60,648 nucleotides of DNA from a virus, in IMG/VR virus record IMGVR_UViG_3300022602_000101, positions 1-60,648 of that record, one strand, 5' to 3'. Below, one piece after another: positions 14,035 to 55,021 of the stretch (the stretch's first letter is position 1; each line of letters starts with the position of its first letter). The notes under the pieces are model-generated. The model did no database searches. It was not told the origin of the DNA and worked only from the letters and a program-made list of their open reading frames with translations. The translations under genes were made by a program, and so were the position numbers.

Positions 14035-14899
14035 GCATTGCTTCAATTTGTTGTCTGTATTCAGGGGTAACACCACGTCTCGACCAAAAGTAACGTATAG
14101 GGTTGATTAAATCACCCTTAACAGGGTTTGTGTCCATGTCATAGATAACTGTGTATGGACGCTCACCAATGGGTTCAAAACGGTCATTACGAGGCATTGG
14201 TTCAAGACCAAATTGTTTCCATTTTGGGTCAGCCCAAAAGGAACCAGGGGTGGGTGCCACAGTGACAATCCTATACTTGTGTGCATCAAACTTCAATATG
14301 AACGCACCCATATCAGGAAACTCTGAGAATGTCTGTGGATACTCATTTCTTTGTAATAATGTGTATGCCGTAAATGGGTAACCATGCAGATCCTCAATGT
14401 GATTCCTGAATCTGCGATACATATCAATTAAGTACACTGCTGGGTGTCTCACCATGCATTCCCATTCACAATCAAAACCAAGGTTGTTTTGTATGTTAGT
14501 GCGCCATTTGATACGATTGGTATGATGCTTAAAATCATCAAAATGCTCTCTAACAAGCAATGGTTTACCATCATGGATAAATGTCTCCATATTGAACGGT
14601 TCGCCAAATATACAGTCTGAATCAATGTGCATTACTGCCTCAGTGCCCTTGGGACACCATAAATCAGCCTCACATTTGGCTATCATGTGGTGTAGGAACT
14701 CTTTACCAGCCATGGGCAAATAATGACGCAAAGTGCAGCCATATTTGTCAGCTAACACTTGGAACATTTCCCTATCACCATATTCCACAACTAAAGTGAT
14801 TCCACTATAACCACTTCCAAACTTCTTAACTGTACGTAAAGTATACTCAGCAAACTCGTAATCCTTACGGTATGTAACCATCATTATTTCGACACGCAT
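14024..14899 (-). CDS. Putative glycosyltransferase on the opposite strand
   Basis: 291 residues. The start RVEIMMVTYRKDYEFAEYTL and the motif MHIDSDCIFGEP near residue 90 give a GT-A fold pattern with a DxD metal site, of the DUF6492-like type. A conserved-looking GYPFTAYTLLQRNEYPQTF segment follows. It lies leftward inside an otherwise rightward late region, so it is an insertion-like cargo gene. Together with its two neighbours it forms a three-gene sugar-transfer block. The acceptor is unknown; virion or DNA decoration are both possible. Confidence 0.6.
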   Translation of the reverse strand: MRVEIMMVTYRKDYEFAEYTLRTVKKFGSGYSGITLVVEYGDREMFQVLADKYGCTLRHYLPMAGKEFLHHMIAKCEADLWCPKGTEAVMHIDSDCIFGEPFNMETFIHDGKPLLVREHFDDFKHHTNRIKWRTNIQNNLGFDCEWECMVRHPAVYLIDMYRRFRNHIEDLHGYPFTAYTLLQRNEYPQTFSEFPDMGAFILKFDAHKYRIVTVAPTPGSFWADPKWKQFGLEPMPRNDRFEPIGERPYTVIYDMDTNPVKGDLINPIRYFWSRRGVTPEYRQQIEAMLKD

Positions 14900-14963: not shown

Positions 14964-15824
14964 ATGGACAATAATTGTATAATCCCACCGACAGTTGCAT
15001 ACCTATTTAAGGGTGTTGTGGGTGCTACAGGTGTATCAGGTCCCCAAGGGCCAATAGGTCCAAATGGTGGCCCATCAGGTCCCAGTGGCCCTACTGGTCC
15101 TCTTGGCCCAACTGGAGCCACAGGAGCAGGTGTTACTGGCCCAACAGGGGCAACTGGAGCCACAGGCTTACAGGGATCAATCGGTTTAACAGGACCTACG
15201 GGTCCAATTGGTGCTACTGGTGCATATGGTCCAACAGGTCCATCTGGTTCAACTGGTGCAACTGGAGCATTAGGACCACAGGGTCCAGCTGGAACAACAG
15301 GCGCTACAGGATTAGTAGGTCATACTGGTGCCACTGGCCCAGCAGGTGGACCAACTGGTGCAACTGGCGCACAGGGTCCGACAGGTCAAACTGGCCCAGT
15401 ACCAACCATATTAGGTCAAACTAACCAGATTAATGTAACATCAACTGGTGCAGTTTATACCATTGGTTTATCAAGCAACATAACTGGACCATTATCATAT
15501 TCTGCCAACATTTTCTCAAATACCGTTAAAACAATGACTTATGGTTCAACAACCAACATTGATTTTAGCCAAGGTGACATGCAGCAAGTACAGTTAACTG
15601 GTGATGTGACATTTACTACATCAAATATTCGCCAAGGACAATCGCTGCTAATCAGAGTAACATCTGATAGTTCAACACGTAATCTTACATTCCCATCAAG
15701 TTGGTCATGGTATCCCTCAAGTGTTGGTGCGCCAACAACAATTGCTCCAACAACCTCATGTTTACTAGCATTGACGGCATGGACAACAAGTGATCTTGGC
15801 ATCTCAGCAGCATGGGCATACTAA
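14964..15824 (+). CDS. Collagen-like tail fibre or virion protein
   Basis: 286 residues. After a short leader ([17 protein letters not shown]), residues 18-148 are continuous Gly-X-Y triplets rich in Thr, Pro and Ala (GATGPTG-type). These would form a trimeric triple helix. The C-terminal 140 residues form a beta-rich head ([21 protein letters not shown] ... [20 protein letters not shown]), of a type common at the ends of phage fibres. It is the first of five collagen-like genes. The repeats keep other frames and the antisense strand open, which explains several spurious ORFs. Confidence 0.75.
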
Positions 15825-15825
15825 C

Positions 15826-16188
15826 ATGAAACCATTTAATACAGCATTTGTGGGTACATTAAATGCAGCATTAATGGCTGATGTTAATACAACAACAGCA
15901 TTTGGTGATGTTATTATTTATCATGGTTCAACAGCATGTGTAAGTAATCAAGTATTTGTTACAGCTAATGGTGGTACAACACCATATACATATACATGGT
16001 CATATGTATCAGGTTCATCAACACCAGCTATTAGTAATACATCACCAGCATATGCTGTGTGGTCAGCATCATCATCAATTCCGACCACAATGAATTCAGT
16101 ATGGAATTGCACAGTAACTGATGCACATGGTAAGACAGCAGTAACACCAAATATTGCAATACAACTAATATTTGAATCTAATTTGTAA
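15826..16188 (+). CDS. Small Ig-like virion protein
   Basis: 120 residues from ATG 15826, two bases after the previous stop. The middle and end read as an Ig/PKD-like beta sandwich: [15 protein letters not shown], then [14 protein letters not shown] with the conserved tryptophans and an asparagine-rich loop, ending in IAIQLIFES. Ig-like domains decorate phage tails and capsids and bind surfaces weakly. Here it is placed between two fibre genes. Confidence 0.6.
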
Positions 16189-16210
16189 ACTTTGGAAACT
16201 CTTTGTCCGC

Positions 16211-18754
16211 ATGGCTACTCCCGTAATTAACACAGTAACCCAACCAATCACCACAACTGCCGAAAGCACATTGGGTGCAACGGGTGCAACTGGTCCAATG
16301 GGTCCACAAGGACCAGCAGGTCCAGCTGGTGCTAATGGTAGTGGTGGTAGTGGTAATGGTGGTACAGGTGCAACAGGTCCAACTGGTCCACAAGGAGCAA
16401 CTGGTGCAGGTGCAACAGGTGCGCAGGGACCAACAGGTCCAATTGGTCATACTGGAGCAACAGGACCTGCTGGCGCCACGGGTGCCCCTGGTCCAGCTAG
16501 CACACAAGGCGCCACTGGTTCTACTGGTGTTCAAGGTCCAGCAGGTGCCACTGGTGTTGGTGCATCAGGACCAACAGGACCCACAGGATCAATTGGTCAA
16601 ACAGGTCCAGTCGGACAAACTGGCCCAACAGGAGCTACAGGAACTCAAGGACCAACTGGATCAGTTTGGTATAATGGTGTTGGATACCCAAATCCAACAG
16701 GTGCCAATGGTGACTATTATTTAGATAAATCAAATGGTAATGTTTATCAAAAACAAACAGGTTTATGGAATTCACCAGTAACTAATATTTTTGGTCCAAC
16801 AGGTGCACAAGGAATACAAGGCGCAACTGGTGCAACTGGTGCTGGTGGTAGCGGTGGTGCAACAGGTGCTACAGGTGCCACAGGTTCTGCTGGTATACAA
16901 GGAGCTACAGGATCAACTGGTGTTCAAGGAGCACAGGGAATAACTGGTGTTCAAGGAATTACTGGACCACAAGGTCCCCAAGGTATTAGTGGGCCACAAG
17001 GTGCTCAAGGAATTTCTGGTGCACAAGGACCAAGCGGTAATCAAGGTGCAGTTGGTCCGACTGGTGCGACAGGTGTAACTGGAGCTGTTGGTCCAACAGG
17101 TGCTGCTGGTATTACTGCAGGTACTACTGGACAAAGATTAATAACCGATACAACGAGCGGTTCTGCTATTATAACATGGGGAAATGATCCCATGATTTAT
17201 GCTGAAGATTACAATTTAAAAACAAGCAATACTGCAAGTGATAATAATACCGCATTACAAAACGCAATAAATGCAGCAATGGCAGTAAATGGAACATTAT
17301 TAATACCATCTGGTATTTTTAATATTAGTACATCGATGCAAATAGGAACATCTACTTCGTCGACTTTCAATGGACGCATAAAAATAAAAGGTTGTGGAAA
17401 AAATGTAACTCAATTAGTTCAAACAAGTGCAACAAATGGAATTACATGTTATTTTGGCACTCCAAATTCTTATGATATTGGTTTAGAAATATCAGATTTA
17501 ACAATAATTGGAAACAATGCATCATGTGCTACTGCAATATATATTAATTGTGGATATTCTGGATCTATTGAGAATAGAGATATTATAACTATTAATAATG
17601 TTACTGTAACTGGAGTTTATCCAAGTACAAATGGTTGGACTAATGGTATATGGATATGCAATGGTTGGCATATTAATATAATAAATACTTATGCAGGTGG
17701 TTGTATTGGAAGATTGCCAACTACAAGCGGATTAGGTTCTGGTGCTGGATTCTATTTACAAGATTGCGTTAATTCAAAACTAGTTAATGTTACATCAGAA
17801 TGGTGGGCAAAAGGATATTATTCTCCTAATTTTTATACAAGTGCTTGGGCAAGTGGTTCTAGTTACACAGCTGGAACACTTACTGGTTCTACATTTATTT
17901 ATGCTCCTGACGTTATAGCTTATAATATAGCAAATAATACAGGTTACAGTTATTGGTATGAATGCATACAAAATATAACAAATAGTACGATTGAACCTTG
18001 GTTAGATCCTACTCATTTTGCGCAAAGAGTAGGACCCAATCAAGGAACGCAAATTAATAATTTCATGACGTTAAATACTACAAGTGCTATTTATAGCCAG
18101 CATTCAACAATGTATTTAACTAACTTTTTATTTGATAATGGTAATAATACCAACAGTAATTGGCAAACCATTTATTTAAAAGATCATTTTGGTATTGGTT
18201 ATATTTCTTGTGGGCAAATTTTACAAAATGGTGGAACAAATCAAATTTATATAGATGGTGGAAGTGGTGTTATAATATCCAACGTTGATTTTACACAGCA
18301 AAATACATTAACAGAATCTTCAATTCGTTTAGTTAATAGTGCTTATAATAATTTAATTACTTCATGCGTTTTTGCTTCAGCAGTTGGAATAAAAATAGAC
18401 AATGGATGTACTAATAATATTGCTAGAGCAAATATGAATCCTAATGGGTGCATTGATAATAATGTAAATGCTCCATTAAATTATCTAGGAGATGATGTTG
18501 GATACCAAGGATTGATAACATTAACTGGTGGATCATCAACAGAAGTACATTCTATAGATGTATCTAAATCTGGATTAGGTAGACAACCTGATGGTGTCAC
18601 AATTCAAGTAACTTCTGATCCATCTTTTGGTGCATTATATTACTGGCAAGATACTGGTAATAACAGAAATACCGTAAGAGTAATGTTTTTCTTATGGAAT
18701 GGTGGTACATTACCAAATGCTACTATTCGTTATTCAATGAGATGCGGTCCATAA
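16211..18754 (+). CDS. Collagen-stalk beta-helix tailspike
   Basis: 847 residues from ATG 16211; the frame also opens at 16172 inside the previous gene. Collagen triplets run from about residue 20 to 150. A short globular insert follows ([20 protein letters not shown], about 152-198), with more collagen to about 305. Then the segment [20 protein letters not shown], typical of the N-cap of right-handed beta-helix spikes, opens a beta-helix of some 500 residues ([32 protein letters not shown]). Such spikes bind or cut host surface polysaccharide. From about 17120 the DNA is visibly richer in A+T and AGA codons than the stalk, suggesting the spike was grafted on. Confidence 0.78.
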
Positions 18755-18767
18755 CAATTTAAATCAT

Positions 18768-20948
<2,181 letters not shown>

Positions 20949-20951
20949 TAA

Positions 20952-20980
20952 TTGCCCCAAAAGCCCTTAACTGATACCAT
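20952..20980 (+). promoter_or_regulatory. Fibre-gene promoter, leaderless geometry
   Basis: TTGCCC (20952-20957), 17 bp, TACCAT (20975-20980), six bases, ATG 20987. The spacing is identical to the 14929 and 37159 elements. Confidence 0.5.
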
Positions 20981-20986
20981 AAAAAT

Positions 20987-21694
20987 ATGTCAAACGGTTG
21001 TAATACATGCTCAGATGGTACTAGTTGGCCAAGTCCCAACTGTGCCCCACCTACCCCTGTAACCACAATTGTAGCTGGTCCACAAGGTCCTAGTGGCCCA
21101 TCTGGTGCTACTGGCCCACAGGGTAACCGTGGGCAACAGGGATCAACTGGCGTCACTGGTCCAACTGGGCCACAAGGACAAATTGGTTTACATGGTATTA
21201 CAGGTGCAACAGGTGCCACTGGCCCTGCAGGTACTAGTTCAATATTAGCTTACTTTACTGGTCATCAATGGAATCCAACATTACCATATAATGGCACAAT
21301 AACATCAATGACTGGAAATCAGATCCTTAACATGGGTCAGATACCATTTTCAAGTGGTGGCTATATATGCGATTTTAAGATACAATTTGCTTGGGTTGGT
21401 GGTGCTGCAACAGCTGGCAGCGGTATTGATGGTGATTTAAATATACAAGTTGGTCTTGGTAACACTGTGGCAACAATCCATTGGGGATTAGCTAACTCAG
21501 CTTCAACAAGTATTGGTGTGGTACAAGGTTACTCACACTCAATACTATTACCATTAACACAAGGTTCTAATATTTACTTATCAACAAGTGCTAATTTCTT
21601 GTTAGTGGGTGCACAGTTGTCTGTGTACAATTATCAAGGAACGGGTACTTACATTATTAACTCCCCAGGGTGGCAGACTGGTGGCAACGATTAA
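20987..21694 (+). CDS. Short collagen-like fibre protein
   Basis: 235 residues. The leader SNGCNTCSDGTSWPSPNCAP has the same cysteine spacing as the gene upstream. About 17 collagen triplets follow (residues 30-82), then a 150-residue beta-rich head (YICDFKIQFAWVGGAATAGS, IYLSTSANFLLVGAQLSVYN). The common leader with the 18768 gene suggests that both attach to the same virion site. Confidence 0.7.
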   Translation: MSNGCNTCSDGTSWPSPNCAPPTPVTTIVAGPQGPSGPSGATGPQGNRGQQGSTGVTGPTGPQGQIGLHGITGATGATGPAGTSSILAYFTGHQWNPTLPYNGTITSMTGNQILNMGQIPFSSGGYICDFKIQFAWVGGAATAGSGIDGDLNIQVGLGNTVATIHWGLANSASTSIGVVQGYSHSILLPLTQGSNIYLSTSANFLLVGAQLSVYNYQGTGTYIINSPGWQTGGND

Positions 21695-26221: not shown

Positions 26222-26731
26222 ATGTCATTACAAGTAGCAGATCAATCAATAGTACGCAGCCAATCTGACGGTGATCGTTTGGCTAATGCTGATTGCTCAC
26301 TTGATAATATCAACAAGCTAGAAGCTGAGTTACTAAAGCTGCCACAGATTGATTGCCCATTACATCACAGTTTCGCCCCACATGTATATCTACGTGAGAT
26401 AACAATGCCAGAGGGTGCATTCATCATCGGCAGAGAGCATACAACAGAACATTTTAATATCATCTTAACAGGACGTGCATCAGTATTAATGGACGGTGTT
26501 GTACATGAGATACAAGCACCATGCATCATTAAATCAAATGCTGGTGTCCGCAAGATACTATACATTCATGAAACAATGCGTTGGGCAACAGTGCATCCAA
26601 CAAATGAAACAAACATTGAAATACTAGAAGAAACATTAACAGTGAAAACACCAGCTTTTCGTGATCATGAGATGCGTAAACAACTTGAGGACTTCCAAAA
26701 GAAGCTAATCGAACTAAAGGAGAAACAATAA
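26222..26731 (+). CDS. Cupin-like virion protein
   Basis: 169 residues from ATG 26222, two bases after the previous stop. The middle (APHVYLREITMPEGAFIIGR, EHTTEHFNIILTGRASVLMD) is a double-stranded beta-helix (cupin) pattern with histidines at HTTEH as possible metal ligands. A helix of charged residues ends the protein. Cupin-like proteins are often found among tail genes of aquatic phages; the reaction, if any, is unknown. Confidence 0.55.
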   Translation: MSLQVADQSIVRSQSDGDRLANADCSLDNINKLEAELLKLPQIDCPLHHSFAPHVYLREITMPEGAFIIGREHTTEHFNIILTGRASVLMDGVVHEIQAPCIIKSNAGVRKILYIHETMRWATVHPTNETNIEILEETLTVKTPAFRDHEMRKQLEDFQKKLIELKEKQ

Positions 26732-32896: not shown

Positions 32897-33454
32897 ATGG
32901 ACATAACGTCACTAACCCAACCATGCAACTATGACAGGATACTTGATGAGGAAACTCCACAGGCGCAGCGAATTGCCCGTTATCTTACTGGTTACAACGT
33001 TATTCGTGTACTTGATATTGGGTGTGGTCCTGCTAATTACGTTGAAACATTACGTGATGCTGGGATTTCGGCATTTGGCATAGACATCGATGAAAGATGT
33101 TTGCGATCAGTGTATTGTTTTTGCATGGATCTCACTAAGGAGCCATGTCCCATTAAATCACCAGTGGTATTGTCACTTGAGGTTGGTGAACACATACCAG
33201 CACAATATTCTAAAAGATACATTGAGTTTATTGCTGAGGCTGAACCAACCATGGTTATATTCAGTGCAGCTAATCATGGTCAAGGTGGTGATGGACACAT
33301 TAATTGCCAAGGTAAGAGCTACTGGGCAACACGCTTTGAATGGTTTGGTTACACCTATGACCCAATCGCCACACAAGACTTTGTTGATTACATGAAAGAT
33401 GGTTATCACCTTGGATGGTTAGTTAAAAATGTAATGATATTTTATAAAACATGA
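32897..33454 (+). CDS. SAM-dependent methyltransferase (class I)
   Basis: 185 residues. Motif I VLDIGCGPANYVETL at about residue 36, then FGIDIDERC (motif II acidic loop) at about 60, and VVLSLEVGEHI (motif IV region) at about 92: a Rossmann methyltransferase. The later FEWFGYTYDPIATQDFVDYM resembles SAM methyltransferases that act on sugars or small molecules in glycan clusters. It overlaps the start of the GT-B glycosyltransferase by four bases, so the two probably act in one modification pathway. Confidence 0.75.
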   Translation: MDITSLTQPCNYDRILDEETPQAQRIARYLTGYNVIRVLDIGCGPANYVETLRDAGISAFGIDIDERCLRSVYCFCMDLTKEPCPIKSPVVLSLEVGEHIPAQYSKRYIEFIAEAEPTMVIFSAANHGQGGDGHINCQGKSYWATRFEWFGYTYDPIATQDFVDYMKDGYHLGWLVKNVMIFYKT

Positions 33455-34632
33455 AAAAGCCTACTCTCCACGTTATTGCACCATTTCATACCATGATGAA
33501 TACTGATTTTCATCATTGTGCATTTACACAAAAAGCATTCCGCATCCCAAAAATGATGCAGCCATTGGGGTATGAGGTGGTTGAGTATGCTAATGGTGTG
33601 TCAGAATCAGAAGCTGCCATCAAGGTCATGATACTCTCACAAGAGGAGCTTGAGAAATCAACTGGCAAGCATGAGAAGTCAGCATTCCATGGTAACACTG
33701 CTGTTATTGGTACTCCACATTGGACTGAGTTTGATAAACGTGTTAAGGAACAGTTAGCAAAGCATGTAAAACCTAATGACATCATTTGTCACCCATTTGG
33801 TAGGGCACATGCTGACATTGTGAAGATGTTTCCACAACAGTACCATGTTGAAACAGGTATTGGTTACCCTGACTCAGACTTTGGTGCATTCCGTATCTTT
33901 GAATCATATGCATGGATGCACTACCATTTGGGCAAAAAGCTACATTTCGACCAAAATGGACGAGTATGCTACAACCAAGATCAATTACCAATAGTGGGTG
34001 AAGGTGGTAAGGATTACATGTGGATCGTTCCAAACTACTTTGACCTTGAGGATTGGCCATATAACCCCAATAAGGGCCAGTATTTGCTCTATTACGGCCG
34101 TATCTGCACAGAAAAGGGTCTAGATACCATTAAAGCTATTGCTGACTATCTTGACGAGGAAATCTGGCTTGTTGGCCAAGGTGATTCATCACCATGGAAG
34201 CATGAGAAACTTGTATACAAGGGACCACGCACTGGTAAAGAACGTTCTGAAGTGGTTGGTAATGCCAAAGCGTTACTCATGCCAACACGCTACATTGAAC
34301 CATTTGGTGGTGCTGGTGTTGAGGGACAACTCACTGGTGCCCCACTAATAGCTAGTAGCTATGGTTGCTTCAGTGAAACAATTGAGCATGGTAAAACAGG
34401 CTACAGGTGCCACACATTGGGTGATTGGTTAGATGCAATCAAGAATGTGAATGATGGCAAAATCGACCGAGAATACACATCACAAAGAGCACAAAGACTG
34501 TACTCATTAGATACATGTGCTGAACGCTTTGATGCAATATTCCAACAGATATGTGACCTTGGTAGACCAGCTAATGACCCATTAGGATCAGGGTGGTATC
34601 ACCGTAAGGGACATATGGTACATTTACCCTAA
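33451..34632 (+). CDS. GT-B (GT4-like) glycosyltransferase
   Basis: 393 residues. The C-terminal Rossmann half shows the GT4 signature order: GQYLLYYGRICTEKGLDTIK (about residue 207), WLVGQGDSS, AKALLMPTRYIEPFGGAGVE (about 275) with the donor-binding glutamate region, then GAPLIASSYGCFSETI. The N-terminal half is less typical. It would transfer a sugar from an activated nucleotide donor. Paired with the methyltransferase, it suggests synthesis of a methylated sugar on the virion, DNA or host surface. It converges on the HNH gene with a 4-bp overlap. Confidence 0.75.
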   Translation: MKKPTLHVIAPFHTMMNTDFHHCAFTQKAFRIPKMMQPLGYEVVEYANGVSESEAAIKVMILSQEELEKSTGKHEKSAFHGNTAVIGTPHWTEFDKRVKEQLAKHVKPNDIICHPFGRAHADIVKMFPQQYHVETGIGYPDSDFGAFRIFESYAWMHYHLGKKLHFDQNGRVCYNQDQLPIVGEGGKDYMWIVPNYFDLEDWPYNPNKGQYLLYYGRICTEKGLDTIKAIADYLDEEIWLVGQGDSSPWKHEKLVYKGPRTGKERSEVVGNAKALLMPTRYIEPFGGAGVEGQLTGAPLIASSYGCFSETIEHGKTGYRCHTLGDWLDAIKNVNDGKIDREYTSQRAQRLYSLDTCAERFDAIFQQICDLGRPANDPLGSGWYHRKGHMVHLP

Positions 34633-37193: not shown

Positions 37194-40010
37194 ATGTCTT
37201 GCGACCCATGTTCACAACCTGCTTGGTGTACCCCACCAAATTTTGACATACTGTTCCCTGACCTCATTGGTCCAACAGGTGCCACAGGTGTGCTTGGGCC
37301 AACTGGTGCCACGGGTCCGCAGGGTACCACAGGACCTACTGGTCCAAAGGGTAGCACAGGTAGTACGGGACCAATTGGACCACAAGGGTTAACAGGACCA
37401 CAAGGTGTGACTGGCCCATCAGGACCAACAGGTCCTAGTGGTGCAACAGGGCCACAAGGTACCACTGGTACCACAGGTGCGACAGGTATCCAAGGACCAC
37501 AGGGTGGTACTGGACCAACTGGCGCACAAGGCATACAGGGTGCAACAGGACCCACAGGTATTCAAGGGCCACAAGGCTCAACAGGTGCAACAGGTGTTAT
37601 TGGTCAAACTGGTACAACGGGTGCCACGGGACCAATTGGCACAACTGGTGCAACTGGACCACAAGGTAGCACAGGACCGACTGGTACACAGGGTATCACT
37701 GGACCAACTGGTGCAACTGGACCAATTGGTGTCACTGGTCCGACAGGACAAACAGGACCATCAGGTCACACTGGCGCAACAGGTCCACAAGGGCCAACTG
37801 GATCACAGGGTACAACTGGACCAACGGGACCAATTGGTATTAGTGGTGCAACAGGTAGCACTGGATCACAGGGTTTAACTGGTAGCACTGGACCAACAGG
37901 TATACAGGGTCCACAGGGTAGTACTGGTGCGACAGGTGTACAAGGTGTAACAGGGCCAACAGGACCGCAAGGAACGACAGGACCAACGGGACCACAGGGT
38001 GATCGCTATTCGACAACGAGTACAACATCTTTGGCGATACCAGCACTGAATGCATCAGTGACGCTGACAGTGGGCACAGGGTTGGCATACACAGCTGGAC
38101 AGGAAGTCGTTGTTTATAATTCAGCTGGCAACAATTTTAGCATGGTGCTGACGAGCTACAATAGTGGCACGGGTAGCATGACGGGTACAGTTAATAACAC
38201 AGTTGGTAGTGGTACATACACTACATGGACAGTGAACTTGTCAGGCGCCGTTGGGTCCCCAGGGGCCACTGGCGTCACAGGTCCCACTGGTCCTAGTGGT
38301 GTCAATGGTGCCACTGGTCCATCAGGTCCCACTGGTCCCACTGGACCCACTGGTCCACAGGGTATCACTGGACCCGTTGGTGGCACTGGTGCCACAGGTT
38401 CCACTGGACCAGCTGGAACAAATGGTGCAACAGGTGCTACTGGTATACAGGGACCAAGTGGTCCAATTGGACCAACAGGACCAATTGGTATAACGGGTGC
38501 CACTGGTATTCAAGGTCCATCAGGACCAACAGGTGCCACAGGACCACAGGGTGCTACAGGTGCTGGTGTAACAGGTGCCACTGGACCAACTGGTGCTGGT
38601 GGTGCACTTGGTTATTATGGTTCATTTTACGATACAACTAATCAAACAGCATCAAGTACAACAACGGCATATGTTGTTAACATTGGTGGTTTATTTGAGA
38701 ACAATGGTGTATCGATAACATCAGGCAACAGGATTACTTTTGCGAATGCTGGCACATATAATTTACAGTATTCAATACAGTTTACTAATAGTGATTCAAA
38801 CTCAGATAATGTTGATGTTTGGTTGCGCAAAAATGGTACTGACATAACAGATAGCAATAGCATTTACAATGTATCAGGAACATCACATGGTGGTTCAGGT
38901 GCATTAATTGCTGCTGTTAATTATGTACTTACAGTGGCTGCTGGTGATTACTTGCAGCTCATGTGGGCAGTATCAAATACCACAATTGGTATTACGACAT
39001 TTGCAGCACAGACAGGACCAACAGTGCCAGTGACCCCAGGCGTCATTGTCACTGCACAACAGGTCATGTACACACAGCTTGGACCATCTGGTGCCACTGG
39101 TAGCACTGGACCACAAGGCAGCACTGGTGCCACTGGTGCACAAGGTGTCACAGGTATCACTGGTGCTACTGGTATTCAGGGACCAGCTGGTGCAACTGGT
39201 GCAACAGGTGTTGCTGGTGTTAATGGTGCAACTGGTCCAACTGGTATACAGGGACCACAAGGTGCCACTGGCGCCACTGGTGTGCAAGGTGTCACTGGAC
39301 CAACAGGTGTTGCTGGTACCAATGGTGCGACAGGTGCAACTGGTACAGCTGGTAGCAATGGAACAACTGGTGCAACAGGACCAAGTGGTATTGTTAATGT
39401 ACAGACATTAGCTAGTGGTCCAACTGGTGCACATAATGGTGATCTGTGGTGGGCGACCAATACGGGTCAATTAAAGATTTATTATACTGATTCAAACGGT
39501 TCACAGTGGGTCGATGCATCACAAGGTGCTGCTGGTCCACAAGGTCCAACGGGACCAACAGGTGTCACTGGTAACACAGGTAGCACTGGTGCAACTGGTC
39601 CACAGGGCACAACTGGTCCAACGGGTACACAAGGTACCACTGGTCCAACTGGTCCACAAGGTGGCACTGGCAGCACTGGTCCAACTGGCGTGCAGGGAAC
39701 AACTGGTCCAACAGGTGTTAGTGGTCCAACAGGACCAACTGGTCCATCAGGTATTGTTACAGTGCAAACACTAGCAAGTGGACCAACAGGACAACTCAAT
39801 GGTAATTTATGGTGGAACACCAACACTGGTCAGCTCAAGATATGGTACACTGATACCAATGGATCACAATGGGTTGATGCAGCACAGGGTGCAGCTGGAC
39901 CACAGGGACCAACAGGCGCCACGGGTGTTACTGGTTCACAAGGTAGCACTGGTGCAACAGGACCAGTACCAATCGGCAAAATAGCAGCTTTATCAATGAT
40001 ATTCAGTTAA
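37194..40010 (+). CDS. Large mosaic collagen-like tail fibre
   Basis: 938 residues. A cysteine leader ([20 protein letters not shown]) is followed by about 80 collagen triplets to residue 268. Then come a beta module related to those of the 18768 gene (about 269-353), more collagen, a C1q-like jelly roll (about 472-629: [37 protein letters not shown]), collagen, and two copies of a 50-residue module ([10 protein letters not shown] ... [22 protein letters not shown]) near residues 735 and 856. It ends in [11 protein letters not shown], a tail end seen in many phage fibres. The modular make-up points to recombination with other fibre genes. Confidence 0.78.
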
Positions 40011-46762: not shown

Positions 46763-47572
46763 ATGGTAACAAAATCCCTGAAGCCAATTAAGAAGATTAG
46801 AAGGCTATTCTGGGATATTGAAACGTCTCCAAACGTAGTACTTTCATGGCGTATTGGTTATAAAATCAATATTGATCATGATAATATATTAAAGGAACGT
46901 GCGATCATTTGTATCGGTTACAAATGGGAAGGTGAGAAAGATGCCCACTGCTTACGCTGGGACAAGAATCAAGATGATACACATATGTTGGCTAGCTTCA
47001 TGGAAATCGCCAACACAGCTGATGAGCTAGTGGCACATAATGGTGATAAGTTTGACCTACCATGGATCAGAACTCGTTGTATCAAGCACAAGATACCCAC
47101 GTATCCCACATATAAGACAATTGATACACTGCAGCTAGCCAGACGTCACTTTAACTTTAATAGCAACAGACTGGATTATTTGGCCAAGTTCCTAGACATT
47201 GGCGCCAAGATACATACCACATATGGTTTGTGGAAGAGCATCATACTTGAGAAGGACAAAGATGCACTTGATGAGATGGTCAAGTACTGTAAGTATGATG
47301 TAGTGCTACTTGAAAAGGTATACAACCGCATTGCTGAACATGTGACTCATAAGACCCATGCTGGTGCTGTTGCTGGTCGTGACAGATGGTCATGTGCCAA
47401 GTGTGCTAGTGAAGAGGTGCATTGCAGTTTAACACGTTTAACAGCAGCTGGTAACAAGGTGCATCAAATGAAGTGTAACAAGTGTGGTGGGCTTTACAGC
47501 ATTAGCCACAAACTATTTATGGATTATCAGGAAGCAATGTTTGACAAGAAGAACAAGCCTCTGATAAAGTAA
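46763..47572 (+). CDS. PolB-like 3'-5' exonuclease with zinc ribbon
   Basis: 269 residues. The DEDD exonuclease motifs are visible: Exo I FWDIETSP (about residue 17), Exo II AHNGDKFDLPW (about 91) and Exo III YCKYDVVLL (about 175). The pattern is that of DNA-polymerase-B proofreading domains and stand-alone relatives. The C-terminus adds a zinc ribbon (CAKC near residue 213, CNKC near 233). No polymerase domain is fused or encoded elsewhere in the window, so it may serve repair, nucleotide recycling from host DNA or proofreading for a host polymerase. A terminator follows. Confidence 0.75.
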   Translation: MVTKSLKPIKKIRRLFWDIETSPNVVLSWRIGYKINIDHDNILKERAIICIGYKWEGEKDAHCLRWDKNQDDTHMLASFMEIANTADELVAHNGDKFDLPWIRTRCIKHKIPTYPTYKTIDTLQLARRHFNFNSNRLDYLAKFLDIGAKIHTTYGLWKSIILEKDKDALDEMVKYCKYDVVLLEKVYNRIAEHVTHKTHAGAVAGRDRWSCAKCASEEVHCSLTRLTAAGNKVHQMKCNKCGGLYSISHKLFMDYQEAMFDKKNKPLIK

Positions 47573-48976: not shown

Positions 48977-49250
48977 GATATTTGTTAACGACTAAGTTAC
49001 CTAAGTGAACTAATACTGTGTTGATATGTTTGCATCGTGTTGTGTTAGCGAAACCATAGTTAACAATGCGTTTACCATTGTTGCGGAAACAAATTAGCTT
49101 CTTGTACTTGAAGTCACCACAAGAGCATTCTCCGTTTCCATTGTTCTCATTCATGTCAACCAAGTGAGGATAATCCCCACTTGATTGCACCCAAAAACGC
49201 ATTGCTTCACCAATAATTGGTTCAACTTGTTTGATGTTTATAGTACACAT
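48915..49250 (-). CDS. SWIM zinc-finger protein
   Basis: 111 residues from ATG complement 49250, overlapping the end of the primase-helicase gene by 29 bp. GECSCGDFKYKKLICFRNNG and, 17 residues later, CKHINTVLVHL give the CxC...CxH pattern of a SWIM zinc finger, a nucleic-acid or protein-binding module. The N-terminal VEPIIGEAMRFWVQSSGDYP precedes it. It may assist replication, given its place. Confidence 0.6.
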   Translation of the reverse strand: MCTINIKQVEPIIGEAMRFWVQSSGDYPHLVDMNENNGNGECSCGDFKYKKLICFRNNGKRIVNYGFANTTRCKHINTVLVHLGNLVVNKYHEEINNNINATINHSESPHQ

Positions 49251-51051
49251 AACGGTAGTATTGTGTTGGCCAGAATTGCCAGCTATGTTTGTCAAAGAAT
49301 AGTGGTAAGTCCTTATCCTCACCCTCACCAAAGCGTTGCTTGTCCAGTCGCATGCGACCATCGTACCATCTTTCAAGTTCTGCTATCTTCAGTGGATCCT
49401 TTGCTTCAGTTGCTTCATCAATCTTACGTTGCTTGAGCTTATTGCGCCAAACAACCACAACATTGAATGCAGCATTGTTGATGTCTTGTGATCCACTGAT
49501 GTCAGTCTTTGTTGGTACCTTGTCTTCATTCTCACTCTTACGTGAGTGCGCAACAAGGATCACATGAGCACCAGTGTCATTACAGAAAGCAGTTAACTCA
49601 TCCATGAAACCACGTTGACCATTGTAATCCTCACCTGATACACCGCACTTAAACAGTGAATCAATAACAAAGACATCAATACCAAAGCGCTTGCGTGCAT
49701 ATGTCATGGCACTAAGCAGATTGGCTTTTTGTGCCACACCAACATGATCATAGAACCACAAACTGTTATTGAGCCAATTAAGGCAACCATCAAGCTCATC
49801 CTTTGTATCAGGACGCTTCTTGGCTAATGCACTACGTGTCATCATTTGTAATGTTTTGGCTGGTTTGATTTCAAGTGAGGCATCAAATACCTTAGCACCA
49901 AGACTCACTAAATGAATCAGTAGGTGGTTCAATAATTGTGTCTTACCATGACCAGAATAGCCTGATACAACTGTGAACTCACTTGGACGTATGCGTAGTG
50001 GGAACTCATTCCATGGCATTGGATAACCTGCTTCACCATGTTTTGCATCATACAAGTCCCATACGGCATCATTGAAGCTCATTGCAGTCTTGATCTCTTC
50101 AAGATCAATCTGTGTTGATTCATCAAGTGCTTTCAGGAATGACTCACGATTCATGTTTTGTTGTAAGCATTCATTGGCATCCTTATATGGTAAGGTGACA
50201 ATATAGCTACGATGTAAACCAAGTCTGCGTGCAATCTTTTCGGCTGATTCACGACCAACGCCGTCCATATCAGTTGATATGTAAATGCGTTCAAAGCGTT
50301 CAAGCCATTCCCAATCAAGCTCGATCCACTCTTGGTCGGCAACACCATTAGGCACACTGACGGCAGCTATGCCAACAGTCTGATATGACATGGCATCAAT
50401 CTCACCTTCAGTGACAACAAGTGTGTTGTCATTGTCAGTCACAGTTTTCTTACCAAATAAACAACGCTTTGTGTCCTTTGATGCCCACATCTTTTTCTTA
50501 CCATCAACACCACGTGCAATTTCAAGATACTTCATGTGAACTGCTTTATCATTACCAATATCGAAGTATGGGAATGCAATTGCAGTATCACCATTGATAC
50601 CTGATATGAAATTCTTTGTAACAATCTCTTCAGTTAACTTACGTTCATTAACCAAATAATTCATTACATTGGTTTGTTGTGTTGCTAGTTTAACATTAAG
50701 ACCTGTCTTGTCAGGCATTGCATAAACTTTGGGTTTATACTTCTTAACTGATGCATGATCATCCTTGATGCCAAGCCATTCCTTGGCCTGCTTTGTGGCT
50801 TCTACATAGGTTATATTGCGAGCTTTCGCCCATAACCATAATGCAGTACCACCTTTGTCTGATTCATTAGCACGATCAATGAAACAGCCCACTCTTGGTC
50901 CAGTAACATAAATATGAAAGCTGTCTCCAGCCTCACCATTGATATTACCAAGATGTGCAATATGACCCTTAACCTTTGCGTTAGGGTACAACATGGCAAC
51001 AACATCCCCCATGCGCTGCTTGAGCACATTGTTCAATTCTGCCGTATCCAT
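49222..51051 (-). CDS. Primase-helicase (TOPRIM-DnaB/gp4-like)
   Basis: 609 residues. The TOPRIM primase region has VVTEGEIDAMSYQ (about 211-223) and ISTDMDGVGRESAE (about 256). The RecA-like helicase has a Walker A GYSGHGKT (about 361-368), a Walker B VFVIDSLFKCG (about 456), and later HVILVAHSRK (motif 3) and KTDISGSQDINNAAF. The N-terminal 100 residues lack a clear zinc knuckle. It resembles T7 gp4 and Twinkle and would unwind and prime the fork. A Shine-Dalgarno-like AAAGGA lies eight bases before the ATG. Confidence 0.85.
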   Translation of the reverse strand: MDTAELNNVLKQRMGDVVAMLYPNAKVKGHIAHLGNINGEAGDSFHIYVTGPRVGCFIDRANESDKGGTALWLWAKARNITYVEATKQAKEWLGIKDDHASVKKYKPKVYAMPDKTGLNVKLATQQTNVMNYLVNERKLTEEIVTKNFISGINGDTAIAFPYFDIGNDKAVHMKYLEIARGVDGKKKMWASKDTKRCLFGKKTVTDNDNTLVVTEGEIDAMSYQTVGIAAVSVPNGVADQEWIELDWEWLERFERIYISTDMDGVGRESAEKIARRLGLHRSYIVTLPYKDANECLQQNMNRESFLKALDESTQIDLEEIKTAMSFNDAVWDLYDAKHGEAGYPMPWNEFPLRIRPSEFTVVSGYSGHGKTQLLNHLLIHLVSLGAKVFDASLEIKPAKTLQMMTRSALAKKRPDTKDELDGCLNWLNNSLWFYDHVGVAQKANLLSAMTYARKRFGIDVFVIDSLFKCGVSGEDYNGQRGFMDELTAFCNDTGAHVILVAHSRKSENEDKVPTKTDISGSQDINNAAFNVVVVWRNKLKQRKIDEATEAKDPLKIAELERWYDGRMRLDKQRFGEGEDKDLPLFFDKHSWQFWPTQYYRYVYYKHQTS

Positions 51052-51055
51052 AAGA

Positions 51056-51901
51056 CTATCCTTTCTTTTTAGTTTTTACAGGTTTGTCTGCAGTTTTACT
51101 ATCTCGTACTGCATGGTATTTGTTTCTCTCAACTTTCCAAACCTTATCATTCATTGGCCAATACTTTTTTGTGCTGAACCATAAGTAAGAGATACATAAG
51201 AATTCCTTGTATGCTTGTTCTTGTTCCTCAACAGTGTAAACTTTCCACTGTGGCATCATTGGTTGTTCACTATTGATACCACAATTGATAATGCGTGGTG
51301 GTTTTTTTAATCCAAACTGCTTTTGATAACACTTAGCATAGAAAGCTAACTGTATCTTGTATGAATCCCAGAATGATGCTTTACCATTACGGAACTTGCT
51401 TGTCTTGTAATCAATGATGGCAAGACCATGTTCCTTTGTGACTGCAACAAGATCAGTGCGACCAGCAACGCCAACATCTTGATCGGCAAGCATAATCTCA
51501 CTGCTGACACGTTCTGAGACCATATCATGATACGCTGGAGCAAATGCTTCAATGTATAGTGCTAGGTCTTGGTCAATTGTCATCTGTGGGAATATGTCTA
51601 ATGCATCATGTAGGCGTGTGCCAAAGTCAGCTGCATCAGTACCCTTCTTGCTAGCAAGATCACTAATAAACTTCTTGTAGTTTTCAAGATCATCACCCTT
51701 GTATGGATGAGCAACCATGGCTTGAAACAATTGATCTTGTTTCCAAGTATCAAGTGCGCCATTAGCACGTTCCTTCAACACTGTTGTTATTGAAGGATAT
51801 GCGTTAACTTCACGTGCTGACCTGAGATCCAGATCATGCGCTGAAGCAATAGTGCCATCGGTCACAGTGTACCAATGGCCTGATTGTGCAAAGAATGACA
51901 T
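51056..51901 (-). CDS. PD-(D/E)XK exonuclease (RecB/Cas4-like)
   Basis: 281 residues from ATG complement 51901, directly after the SSB-like stop. Core motifs: DFGTRLHDALDIF (about residue 98), GVAGRTDLVAVTKEHG (about 155, with the Asp) and LAIIDYKTSKF (about 172, the D-YK catalytic pair). This is the PDDEXK fold of phage recombination or processing exonucleases. Pairing with an SSB-like gene upstream and the primase-helicase downstream supports a recombination-replication role. Confidence 0.75.
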   Translation of the reverse strand: MSFFAQSGHWYTVTDGTIASAHDLDLRSAREVNAYPSITTVLKERANGALDTWKQDQLFQAMVAHPYKGDDLENYKKFISDLASKKGTDAADFGTRLHDALDIFPQMTIDQDLALYIEAFAPAYHDMVSERVSSEIMLADQDVGVAGRTDLVAVTKEHGLAIIDYKTSKFRNGKASFWDSYKIQLAFYAKCYQKQFGLKKPPRIINCGINSEQPMMPQWKVYTVEEQEQAYKEFLCISYLWFSTKKYWPMNDKVWKVERNKYHAVRDSKTADKPVKTKKKG

Positions 51902-51902
51902 C

Positions 51903-52556
51903 TTAGAATGGATCTTCTTCAGATTGTACTGGTACGACAACCTGTTTCAAATCTGTTGGCTTAACTTGCACTGATGGCAAATGGTTCTGTAAACCTTTTC
52001 GTTGTGCATCAATGTTCATATTCATTGCAAGATTTTCATAAAATTGTGCACTGAATGATCCATTCATTGATTTCACAAGTTGTGCTTTTTCCATACACAG
52101 TAGTGCAAGTGCAGCAATCTTGCCCAATTCTTCTTGCACATTAATTGGTGACACTGATGTTTGCACTGTTACATTGTTACGTGCAGTGGTCACAGTTTGT
52201 GTTGGCTTTGGCATGTGAACACCAGCAACACCAGCAGGATTACCTGAACCACCAGCTGATGATACAATGCTTAACTTTGCACCTTTGTTGATGGCAACTT
52301 GTGCTACATTTTTGAATTCTTTGCGCTTTAATGATCCATAAAAACTAACGATCATACCTTCATAACGTTGTAGATCAATTTCCCATGTTGTACCTTGTAT
52401 GGTTGATGAATGATCTTGTGGATCAACTAAATTACATTTAGCAGAATTTTTACCATCTGCTGGTGTAACATCTGTTACAAGTGCTTGGAATGTACCATTC
52501 ACCCATGCATCTAATGGTAATTGTTTGATTTCTGCGATTGTTGTTGTTTTAGACAT
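51903..52556 (-). CDS. Single-strand DNA-binding protein-like
   Basis: 217 residues. Residues 15-90 form an OB-type beta barrel pattern (WVNGTFQALVTDVTPADGKN, TWEIDLQRYEGMIVSFYGSL). The middle is Ser/Thr/Val-rich and the tail ends EEDPF, close to the DDIPF end used by bacterial SSB proteins to recruit partners. The place directly upstream of an exonuclease fits. No strict family signature was read, so this is a fold-level call. Confidence 0.6.
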   Translation of the reverse strand: MSKTTTIAEIKQLPLDAWVNGTFQALVTDVTPADGKNSAKCNLVDPQDHSSTIQGTTWEIDLQRYEGMIVSFYGSLKRKEFKNVAQVAINKGAKLSIVSSAGGSGNPAGVAGVHMPKPTQTVTTARNNVTVQTSVSPINVQEELGKIAALALLCMEKAQLVKSMNGSFSAQFYENLAMNMNIDAQRKGLQNHLPSVQVKPTDLKQVVVPVQSEEDPF

Positions 52557-53311: not shown

Positions 53312-53473
53312 ATGAGTGAAATAACAAAAATGTCCGAACAAGAATTAAACAAACTGTTAGCTGAAATATATGATGAGTTACCTGAGAATCCATATACTGA
53401 AGCTGAACTTGATGAATTAGAAAGATTACAACATTTACAAAACAACAGATTTCGTTTACCCCATGAAATATGA
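53312..53473 (+). CDS. Small acidic coiled-coil protein
   Basis: A 53-residue protein, MSEITKMSEQELNKLLAEIY, then DELPENPYTEAELDELERLQ. It is Glu/Leu-rich and helical. It overlaps the next ORF by ATGA, which supports it as a real gene despite its size. Its function is unknown. Confidence 0.5.
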   Translation: MSEITKMSEQELNKLLAEIYDELPENPYTEAELDELERLQHLQNNRFRLPHEI

Positions 53474-53646
53474 GCTTACCACTTGGCGAACAGATCAGAC
53501 TATTACTAGATGAAATGAATTACGACAAAGAACGTTTAACAATGGCAGAGGATTTACTCAATGAGGCATGGTGCCACATTACAGATCAAGACTTGAGACA
53601 AAAGATTAGTGATTATTTAAAAGAAAACATATTATCACGACAATGA
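53470..53646 (+). CDS. Small helical protein
   Basis: 58 residues: SLPLGEQIRLLLDEMNYDKE, LTMAEDLLNEAWCHITDQDL, RQKISDYLKENILSRQ. ATGA overlaps at both ends (53470 and 53643) place it firmly in the coupled chain. No family was recognised. Confidence 0.5.
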   Translation: MSLPLGEQIRLLLDEMNYDKERLTMAEDLLNEAWCHITDQDLRQKISDYLKENILSRQ

Positions 53647-53924
53647 ACCACGCAGACAAAGCAATTGAATTGGTACTTGGTGAACGCAATGCACACTATG
53701 GCACACCACTGGATGATTACACAAAGACCGCCAAAATATGGTCAGGTCTATTAGCACATAAACTTAAAGCTGAAATCACACCACAAGATGCAGTGATTAT
53801 GATGGTTGGCATGAAGCTATCACGTGAGATGCATTTGCACAAAGAAGATAACATTATTGATGCACATGGTTATCTGTTGTGCCTTGAGTGGATACAATCA
53901 GGTAAACGTCCAACAAAGGATTAA
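53643..53924 (+). CDS. DUF6378-like protein
   Basis: 93 residues. NHADKAIELVLGERNAHYGT, PLDDYTKTAKIWSGLLAHKL, ITPQDAVIMMVGMKLSREMH, KEDNIIDAHGYLLCLEWIQS match a well-spread phage family (DUF6378) with a conserved GERNAHYG-type start and a D-x-H-GYL end. Its biochemical role is unknown. Confidence 0.7.
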   Translation: MNHADKAIELVLGERNAHYGTPLDDYTKTAKIWSGLLAHKLKAEITPQDAVIMMVGMKLSREMHLHKEDNIIDAHGYLLCLEWIQSGKRPTKD

Positions 53925-53925
53925 C

Positions 53926-54168
53926 ATGGAAGACAAACTAATTGATGTGCCTGACAAGTATCAGGTTGAATGGGAAGGCATGCCTGAGTTTGTGCAAGAG
54001 CCACAGAAACCATTTGCTAAGATCATTGTGCGTTTTGAGACAGAACAAGACTTGCAAGACTTTGCTAAACTAATCGGCCAAAAGCTAACACCAAAAACAA
54101 AAAGCATATGGCACCCACAACTGGTACGTGGTAAGAACGCAGGACTCAGATATACTGATGCAACCTAA
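53926..54168 (+). CDS. Hypothetical protein linked to TAGT glycosyltransferase
   Basis: 80 residues from ATG 53926 (the frame opens further upstream). FAKIIVRFETEQDLQDFAKL, IGQKLTPKTKSIWHPQLVRG is a short ferredoxin-like or RRM-like pattern. Proteins with this ending (KTKSIW-P) often precede the type of glycosyltransferase that follows here, from memory of phage genomes. It overlaps that gene by 11 bp. Confidence 0.55.
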   Translation: MEDKLIDVPDKYQVEWEGMPEFVQEPQKPFAKIIVRFETEQDLQDFAKLIGQKLTPKTKSIWHPQLVRGKNAGLRYTDAT

Positions 54169-55021
54169 GTATCCAGTCTACGTGATTAGTAAGGGTCGCT
54201 GGAATGTGCGCTTAACAGTGCGTGCATTGGAGCGCATGGGTTGCAAGTACTCCATTGTGGTTGAGCCACAGGAATACAATAACTATGCTGAACACATTGA
54301 TAAGCGTAACATATTGGTATTACCATTCAGCAATTTGGGTCAAGGTAGCATACCAGCACGCAATTGGGTGTGGGAGCATAGCATGTCACTCGGCCATGAT
54401 AAGCATTGGATCCTTGATGATAACATTGAGGACTTTAATAGACTCAATAGGAACATGAAGCCAGTGGTGCGTACACCAGCAATCTTTAGAGCAGCTGAGG
54501 ACTTTGTTGATCGCTACACAAATGTAGCCATTGCTGGATTCAATTATTATTCATTCTGCAAGACAACTGATCGTGTGCCACCATACTACCTTAACACACG
54601 TATTTATTCATGTATCCTAATTGATAACAAGATACCATACAAGTGGCGTGGCAGATACAATGAGGACACAGACCTTAGCCTGCGTGTACTCAAGGATGGT
54701 TACTGCACAGTGTTATTCAATGCTTTCCTTGCTGGCAAGGTGACCACCATGCGCATGAAAGGTGGCAACACTGATGAACTGTACCAAGGTGAGGGCAGAA
54801 AGCTTATGGCACAGGCATTAGTGGACATGCACCCTGACGTGGTCAAGATGACATGGAAGTTTAACAGATGGCATCATCAGGTTGATTACAGGCCGTTTAA
54901 GGCAAATAAATTGATTAAGAAACCAGATCTAGTTGTGCAAAAAGGGATTAACAATTATGGTATGATATTAACAAATCATGAGCCTAAACCACAAACTCAA
55001 CCAACCATTCAGCATAGGTGA
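54158..55021 (+). CDS. TAGT-family DNA-modification glycosyltransferase
   Basis: 287 residues from ATG 54158. PKYPVYVISKGRWNVRLTVR, RNWVWEHSMSLGHDKHWILD, DNIEDFNRLNRN, YYLNTRIYSCILIDNKIPYK, WRGRYNEDTDLSLRVLKDGY, KGGNTDELYQ and WKFNRWHHQVDYRPFKANKL match the TET/JBP-associated glycosyltransferase family of phages. The ILDDN and NEDTDLS acidic clusters are the expected metal and donor sites. These enzymes are thought to glycosylate hydroxymethylated pyrimidines in phage DNA as protection against restriction. No TET/JBP dioxygenase, hydroxymethylase or thymidylate synthase was seen in the window. Confidence 0.8.
   Translation: MQPKYPVYVISKGRWNVRLTVRALERMGCKYSIVVEPQEYNNYAEHIDKRNILVLPFSNLGQGSIPARNWVWEHSMSLGHDKHWILDDNIEDFNRLNRNMKPVVRTPAIFRAAEDFVDRYTNVAIAGFNYYSFCKTTDRVPPYYLNTRIYSCILIDNKIPYKWRGRYNEDTDLSLRVLKDGYCTVLFNAFLAGKVTTMRMKGGNTDELYQGEGRKLMAQALVDMHPDVVKMTWKFNRWHHQVDYRPFKANKLIKKPDLVVQKGINNYGMILTNHEPKPQTQPTIQHR

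What the first reader, a model, noticed from the sequence alone, without database searches (positions are those of the whole stretch)
54158..55021. TAGT glycosyltransferase without a visible hydroxylase
The family is linked to sugar addition on hydroxymethylated pyrimidines, yet no TET/JBP dioxygenase, dCMP/dUMP hydroxymethylase or nucleotide-synthesis enzyme is recognisable here. Either an unrecognised gene makes the acceptor, the host does, or the enzyme uses another acceptor.
Basis: partly seen in the sequence, partly recalled or inferred. Interest (0 to 1): 0.6.

Follow-up and report, generated by a model that had tools for sequence, protein, structure and literature searches.

The report
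Phage sugar-transferase with obligate small partner
This phage carries a gene for a sugar-attaching enzyme of a family known for decorating viral DNA, but neither it nor hundreds of related phages carry a known gene for making the chemical handle that enzyme should need; instead the enzyme almost always travels with one tiny undescribed partner protein, so it probably puts its sugar on something else.

Summary
Window 54158-55021 encodes a TAGT (PF20691, 2.8e-51) under strong purifying selection. The record is a nearly complete phage genome (about 0.66 kb missing by comparison with a relative), and no TET/JBP, thymidylate-synthase-superfamily hydroxymethylase or nucleotide-synthesis enzyme was found.

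One of those ORFs is the real finding. The 80-aa ORF 53926-54168, overlapping the TAGT start by 11 nt, is an undescribed family (here 'MPEF'). It accompanies or is fused to TAGT in 242 of 252 MPEF loci (the other 10 truncated or undecided) and in 78 of 78 from a remote search. In 14 long phage contigs MPEF/TAGT is the only shared protein family. TET or hydroxymethylase genes sit next to the TAGTs of phages P12024L and T6, but not here.

MPEF-TAGT phages avoid restriction-site palindromes (here CCGG 0, CGCG 2), unlike T4/T6, so genome-wide glucosyl-hmC is unlikely. Best reading: a two-part glycosyltransferase, probably nucleic-acid-directed (neighbours are replication genes and DNA methyltransferases), using an unknown acceptor. 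Solitary TAGTs were already noted in 2026; the partner appears new.

The parts
53926..54168 (+). MPEF partner protein, 80 aa (ATG 53926, TAA 54166-54168); motif W..MPEFvQ....IIVRF....DL..F..LIGQKLT.KTKSIWHP; acidic (pI 5.8)
   Evidence: Not matched in Pfam, PHROGs or NCBIfam beyond weak hits of some relatives; adjacent or fused to TAGT in nearly every locus found; dN/dS about 0.09; sequence
54158..55021 (+). TAGT glycosyltransferase (PF20691), 287 aa from ATG 54158, basic (pI 9.5 computed from the in-frame GTG at 54128)
   Evidence: Pfam 2.8e-51, phrog_842 1.9e-50; GT-A fold predicted for a fused homologue; dN/dS 0.04-0.07
54158..54168 (+). 11-nt overlap of MPEF stop and TAGT start (ATGCAACCTAA); probable translational coupling
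   Evidence: Sequence; the same short overlap recurs in most relatives
54416..54424 (+). Codons of the invariant D-D-N motif (predicted metal/nucleotide-sugar binding)
   Evidence: D97, D98, N99 invariant in 26 homologues, numbered from GTG 54128
54662..54667 (+). Codons of the invariant E-D pair of the N-E-D-T-D motif (predicted catalytic)
   Evidence: E179, D180 invariant in 26 homologues
53643..53924 (+). DUF6378 protein directly upstream; present in close relatives, not part of the conserved module elsewhere
   Evidence: PF19905 1.1e-17; found only beside the closest TAGT relatives (L002-L007) among the loci compared

Best explanation
The gene is the catalytic half of a two-component phage module, MPEF-TAGT. 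SHOWN: the TAGT is an intact, conserved GT-A-type glycosyltransferase; it almost always comes with the small MPEF protein, translationally overlapped or fused; and neither this near-complete genome nor nearly all relatives encode a known maker of hydroxylated pyrimidines. INFERRED: MPEF is a bound subunit that directs the basic TAGT to its acceptor. The module works in the early, DNA-metabolism phase on a nucleic acid, most likely DNA, adding a sugar to a sparse or site-specific acceptor that is neither genome-wide 5hmC nor 5hmU. The likely role is defence evasion against something other than ordinary Type II restriction. The acceptor's identity is not established.
For: Linkage: 242 of 252 MPEF loci carry TAGT, 8 of the other 10 are truncated and 2 undecided; 78 of 78 in a remote MPEF-seeded scan, 71 adjacent, 3 fused, 4 separated. 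MPEF/TAGT is the only family in 14 of 14 long contigs, the next being 8 of 14. TS superfamily absent from 49 viral records and from 2 of 9 isolates; six others have only a TS-like copy (Aeh1 plus one sub-threshold fragment), and PTm1 also has a gp42-like copy. Tet_JBP absent from the 49 records and the 9 isolates, with the positive control ringing. Neighbours are DNA polymerase A, DnaB, RusA, RecA, YqaJ, helicases and N6_N4_Mtase; no virion family among the 25 listed. Genes inserted between the halves include SAM methyltransferases, a PF01555 DNA methyltransferase (1.2e-33), an NPPY methyltransferase and restriction-like genes. TAGT is basic in all 26 homologues, pI 8.4-9.7. Palindrome avoidance in most of these phages, much less in T4/T6.
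Against: No structure or sequence match gives MPEF a nucleic-acid role: its model is one helix with extended arms and no PDB match. The best PDB matches of the TAGT model are protein-directed glycosyltransferases (COLGALT1, GnTI, GalNAc-T, SunS), though only at TM 0.33-0.39. Early-region position also fits host-takeover enzymes. The restriction-like insertions could be chance passengers at an insertion hot spot. Site avoidance shows past restriction pressure and does not exclude sparse or recent modification. The host is unknown.
Confidence: 0.45

Rival explanations
1. The module glycosylates a host or phage protein, or host RNA (tRNA/rRNA), as a takeover or defence-inhibiting factor. MPEF recruits the target, or is itself the modified substrate of the adjacent glycosyltransferase.
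For: No nucleobase hydroxylase; closest folds are protein-directed GT-A enzymes, including collagen hydroxylysine galactosyltransferase and the SunS glycocin transferase; a small conserved partner next to a glycosyltransferase resembles precursor/transferase pairs; Aeromonas phage 65 carries it beside a tRNA cluster.
Against: Neighbours and inserted genes are DNA replication and DNA modification genes, and no tail or capsid family appears among the 25 listed neighbour families; the T6 and P12024L relatives sit beside base-modifying enzymes; fusion in several lineages argues against MPEF being only a released substrate. Fold similarity is at the level of any GT-A enzyme.
Confidence: 0.33
2. Classic DNA hypermodification: the genome contains 5hmC or 5hmU made by an unrecognised phage enzyme or by the host, and TAGT glycosylates it throughout.
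For: Family name and T6 precedent (TAGT adds a second glucose to alpha-glucosyl-hmC, PMC13390438, PMC13216743); the Pfam family also contains a TAGT encoded next to Tet_JBP.
Against: Only MPEF is conserved with TAGT in 14 long contigs; MPEF is too small and lacks conserved metal ligands for a hydroxylase; PF00303 and PF12851 empty with working controls; CCGG 0 and CGCG 2 in this window and palindrome avoidance in most relatives; phage phiJL001 carries a T6-like TAGT, no base-synthesis genes, and its DNA is cut normally (PMC4276943).
Confidence: 0.12
3. A decayed remnant: a TAGT left from an ancestor with a full hydroxymethylation pathway, no longer functional.
For: The expected partner enzyme is absent.
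Against: dN/dS 0.04-0.07; catalytic residues invariant; intact in many unrelated phages together with its partner.
Confidence: 0.02

Closest known systems
T6 beta-glucosyl-HMC-alpha-glucosyltransferase (ggt, T6 TAGT)
   Same: Same Pfam family PF20691 (39 bits); predicted GT-A fold (PMC13216743) and a DD-type motif
   Different: T6 TAGT sits next to gp42 dCMP hydroxymethylase and acts on alpha-glucosyl-hmC; a profile of the window's clade scores T6 TAGT at only about 4-5 bits; the T6 TAGT shows no MPEF match
Tet_JBP-TAGT cluster of Nonlabens phage P12024L (gp26-gp27-gp28)
   Same: TAGT homologue (26% over 59% of the query by tblastn; 70 bits to the clade profile) followed by a DPPY methyltransferase gene; the MPEF-TAGT pair also attracts such methyltransferases
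   Different: The upstream position holds a Tet_JBP dioxygenase (PF12851, 2.8e-29) in P12024L and MPEF in the window's clade
MPEF-TAGT fusion proteins of Aeromonas phages Aeh1, phiAS5, 65, of Vibrio phages Kuja and 1.124.O, and of Tenacibaculum phage PTm1
   Same: Same clade (about 46-55% identity), with MPEF as N-terminal region; annotated 'beta-glucosyl-HMC-alpha-glucosyltransferase' or hypothetical
   Different: Fused in one protein rather than two overlapping genes; of those tested only PTm1 has a gp42-like hydroxymethylase
Solitary TAGTs reported in the literature
   Same: 288 of 753 phage genomes have a TAGT without alpha- or beta-GT (PMC13216743); phiJL001 has a T6-like TAGT but normally cut DNA (PMC4276943)
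   Different: Those reports, in the passages read here, do not mention a partner protein; PMC13216743 counts missing GTs rather than missing acceptor-making genes

Membership tests
TAGT (PF20691) | Sequence match above the curated cut-off | tested here: met
   174.8 bits against cut-off 27.5
TAGT (PF20691) | GT-A fold with DD metal motif and ED catalytic motif | tested here: met
   D97 D98 N99 and E179 D180 invariant; AlphaFold2 model of fused homologue L191, pLDDT above 90 over most of the TAGT part, best PDB matches are GT-A glycosyltransferases
TAGT (PF20691) | Association with a TET/JBP dioxygenase (origin of the name) | tested here: not met
   PF12851 absent in the window and in all other TAGT records tested except P12024L, which served as positive control
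TAGT (PF20691) | Transfers a sugar to a modified pyrimidine in DNA | not testable with these tools
   Needs LC-MS or an enzyme assay
T-even type cytosine hydroxymethylation/glucosylation | dCMP hydroxymethylase of the thymidylate synthase superfamily | tested here: not met
   PF00303 0 of 49 records including the window; T4/T6 gp42 detected as control
T-even type cytosine hydroxymethylation/glucosylation | Little need to avoid restriction palindromes | tested here: not met
   In the window CCGG 0/25 and CGCG 2/25, though 6-base palindromes are not depleted (0/43); relatives up to 30/53 6-base palindromes depleted, T4 and T6 2/62 each
MPEF-TAGT module (defined here) | MPEF ORF adjacent to or fused with TAGT | tested here: met
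   53926-54168 overlaps 54158-55021 by 11 nt

The most novel reading that the evidence does not exclude
MPEF-TAGT is a self-sufficient enzyme that glycosylates a nucleic-acid base or group without any prior hydroxylation, or via a base handle no one has described, using MPEF to reach or prepare the acceptor. It would be a form of DNA or RNA glycosylation unlike the T-even, TET/JBP or arabinosyl-hydroxycytosine pathways, spread through hundreds of phages.
Probability: 0.15. Interest if true: 0.9.

Novelty: new variant of a known kind. Interest (0 to 1): 0.6.

Why it matters
Databases name these proteins 'beta-glucosyl-HMC-alpha-glucosyltransferase', which implies glucosylated hydroxymethylcytosine. 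For this clade that annotation is probably wrong. It is a widespread two-gene module whose acceptor is unknown and whose partner protein has no database family. Cultured phages carry it (phiAS5, Aeh1, phage 65, Vibrio 1.124.O, Kuja), so one LC-MS experiment can decide what is being glycosylated.

Tried and rejected
(1) Cupin-like gene at 26222 as hydroxylase: rejected, a tail-fibre family. (2) Small ORFs 53312-54168 as hydroxylase: two short ORFs with no convincing match, DUF6378, and MPEF; none fits. (3) Missing sequence hiding the enzyme: the uncovered 0.66 kb holds only 129- and 60-aa ORFs in the bridging relative. (4) MPEF as a domain shared with DNA methyltransferases: considered when L136/L138 showed methyltransferases directly behind MPEF; rejected because TAGT follows just downstream, so these are insertions. 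(5) Collagen-like tail proteins of this phage as acceptor, suggested by the COLGALT1 fold match: not pursued, since the module's neighbours in other phages are not virion genes and the fold match is generic. (6) MPEF fold: single helix with extended arms, no PDB match; sequence searches of Pfam, NCBIfam, PHROGs, PDB and plasmids gave nothing convincing. (7) A positive control for PF12851 in bacterial genomes: none in 299; phage P12024L served instead. (8) Records NC_006938 (intended: phiJL001) and NC_008195 (intended: mycobacteriophage Cooper) were not in the collection.

Full report
OBSERVATION. The gene at 54158-55021 is a TAGT: PF20691 at 174.8 bits (cut-off 27.5) and phrog_842 'beta-glucosyl-HMC-alpha-glucosyltransferase' at 1.9e-50. 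Its ATG at 54158 overlaps the TAA (54166-54168) of the ORF before it. It evolves under strong purifying selection (dN/dS 0.04-0.07).

ABSENCE OF A HYDROXYLASE. The window is one linear IMG/VR record. Relative L002 joins the two ends of the window; about 0.66 kb is not covered, and it holds only 129- and 60-aa ORFs in the relative, so the genome is nearly complete. Pfam scans of about 83 ORFs and whole-record searches for PF00303 and PF12851 found no TS-superfamily enzyme (the superfamily that includes dCMP/dUMP hydroxymethylases), no TET/JBP and no nucleotide-synthesis gene. The cupin-like gene at 26186-26731 matches tail-fibre families.

THE PARTNER. Homologues in phages Aeh1, phiAS5, 65, Kuja, PTm1 and 1.124.O carry an extra N-terminal stretch. 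Its counterpart in the window is the separate ORF 53926-54168 (80 aa), here called MPEF after its motif. In 58 dereplicated TAGT loci no other gene family is widely conserved around the gene. Three MPEF-seeded scans of viral contigs gave the reverse test. Of 252 loci with MPEF (seeded by either partner) 242 have TAGT; 8 of the rest are truncated and 2 undecided. In the most remote scan it is 78 of 78: 71 adjacent, 3 fused, 4 separated. Several contigs recur between scans, so these are loci, not independent events. Residues conserved in at least 90% of 102 MPEFs are W, M, P, E, F, Q, F, F, Q, K, W and P, with no conserved His/Asp set that could hold iron. MPEF is not in Pfam, NCBIfam or PHROGs beyond weak hits. 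Its model is one helix with extended arms and no PDB match, which suggests it folds against a partner (inference).

WHAT SURROUNDS THE MODULE. Pfam families among immediate neighbours in other phages are DNA polymerase A, RusA, DnaB, RecA, YqaJ, helicases, N6_N4_Mtase, NinG, NinB, MT-A70 and Prim-Pol; no virion family is in the 25 listed. Some lineages have genes inserted between MPEF and TAGT: SAM methyltransferases (L021, L044, L061, L066), an N6/N4 DNA methyltransferase (L138, PF01555 1.2e-33), an NPPY methyltransferase (L136 and others), and in L213 a further pair resembling a restriction endonuclease and a methyltransferase by eye (no Pfam match).

NO COMMON ACCEPTOR-MAKER. In 14 long contigs of diverse phages, MPEF/TAGT is the only family present in all; the next reaches 8. 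TS superfamily is absent from 49 viral records (a few of these were fetched by terminase, not TAGT). Among nine isolates two have none; henriette, Kuja and phage 65 have a copy keeping the TS asparagine; only PTm1 has a copy with the aspartate of gp42 (the copies of phiAS5, Aeh1 and POP12 were judged by score alone, and the asparagine/aspartate rule is from general knowledge). Tet_JBP is absent from the same 49 records (no control rang there) and from the isolates, with the detector shown to work on Nonlabens phage P12024L. There Tet_JBP gp26 lies directly before TAGT gp27, and a DPPY methyltransferase follows. In T6 the dCMP hydroxymethylase is next to the TAGT. So the place beside TAGT is taken by an acceptor-making enzyme in those clades and by MPEF here. 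The window's clade is distant from T6: its profile gives T6 TAGT only 4-5 bits.

IS THE DNA PROTECTED? In the window CCGG occurs 0 times and CGCG twice (about 25 expected each by a Markov model). Other MPEF-TAGT contigs show GATC 1 of 204, ACGT 0 of 71 and GTAC 6 of 220, and up to 30 of 53 testable 6-base palindromes depleted. T4 and T6 show 2 of 62, although both are moderately short of GATC. The window itself shows no 6-base depletion (0/43), and some members (G030, 1.124.O) no strong 4-base depletion. PTm1, which has the gp42-like gene, also avoids GATC. The signal speaks against genome-wide protection by glycosylated cytosine. It does not exclude sparse, site-specific or recently acquired modification.

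MECHANISM. Shown: an intact GT-A-type transferase (DDN and ED motifs invariant; model pLDDT 86.5; GT-A folds in PDB), an almost invariant small partner, and no known hydroxylation pathway. Inferred: MPEF is a subunit that aims the basic TAGT (pI 8.4-9.7) at a nucleic acid during early infection, on an acceptor that is not genome-wide hydroxymethyl-pyrimidine. The main rival is a protein or RNA acceptor, since the nearest folds are protein-directed transferases at generic similarity.

WHAT IS KNOWN. T6 TAGT adds a second glucose to alpha-glucosyl-hmC (PMC13390438, PMC13216743). Solitary TAGTs, 288 of 753 genomes without alpha- or beta-GT, were noted in 2026 (PMC13216743), and phiJL001 with a T6-like TAGT has normally cut DNA (PMC4276943). 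No paper found here describes the MPEF partner; only the open-licence library was searched.

LIMITS. Most related contigs are fragments. Each scan keeps only the best 80 loci. Host and DNA chemistry are unknown. The palindrome test is indirect.

Noticed in passing
window 14964-21694 and 37194-40010: Several long collagen-like Gly-X-Y tail genes with very many 9-nt-register repeat copies; a two-copy 290-nt repeat (72%) lies at 39313-39965.
   Followed up: no
window 32897-34632: A SAM-methyltransferase-like gene overlapping a group-1 glycosyltransferase gene (phrog_3408, 1.1e-48), a second possible sugar-transfer pair near the structural region; 14024-14899(-) has a weak DUF6492 match.
   Followed up: partly
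window, whole: CCGG is completely absent (0) and CGCG nearly so (2), a strong restriction-avoidance signature that may hint at the host's restriction enzymes.
   Followed up: partly
L213:5218-7932 (also L215, L214): Between MPEF and TAGT: NPPY methyltransferase, an HNH-looking ORF, a PD-(D/E)XK-looking nuclease and a second methyltransferase-like ORF (by eye), like a restriction-modification island; L211 and L217 have a ParB-looking ORF in the same place.
   Followed up: partly
L041:8422-10819 and L093 (phage Kuja): Two tandem TAGT copies; both L041 copies, and at least one in Kuja, are fused to an MPEF-like stretch.
   Followed up: no
L136:2839-5340: Downstream of TAGT: cupin protein, a cytidylyltransferase-like ORF and a UDP-sugar-dehydrogenase-like ORF (the last two by eye), possible sugar-nucleotide supply for this TAGT.
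   Followed up: no
Phage T6 record MH550421, 22359-22970: The PF20691 match runs across a TAG upstream of the annotated ggt start, so the annotated T6 TAGT may lack the N-terminal part of the family domain.
   Followed up: no
window 46763-47572: DNA-polymerase exonuclease-subunit-like gene, with primase-helicase (49222-51051 -) and exonuclease (51056-51940 -), but no polymerase domain recognised in the near-complete genome.
   Followed up: no
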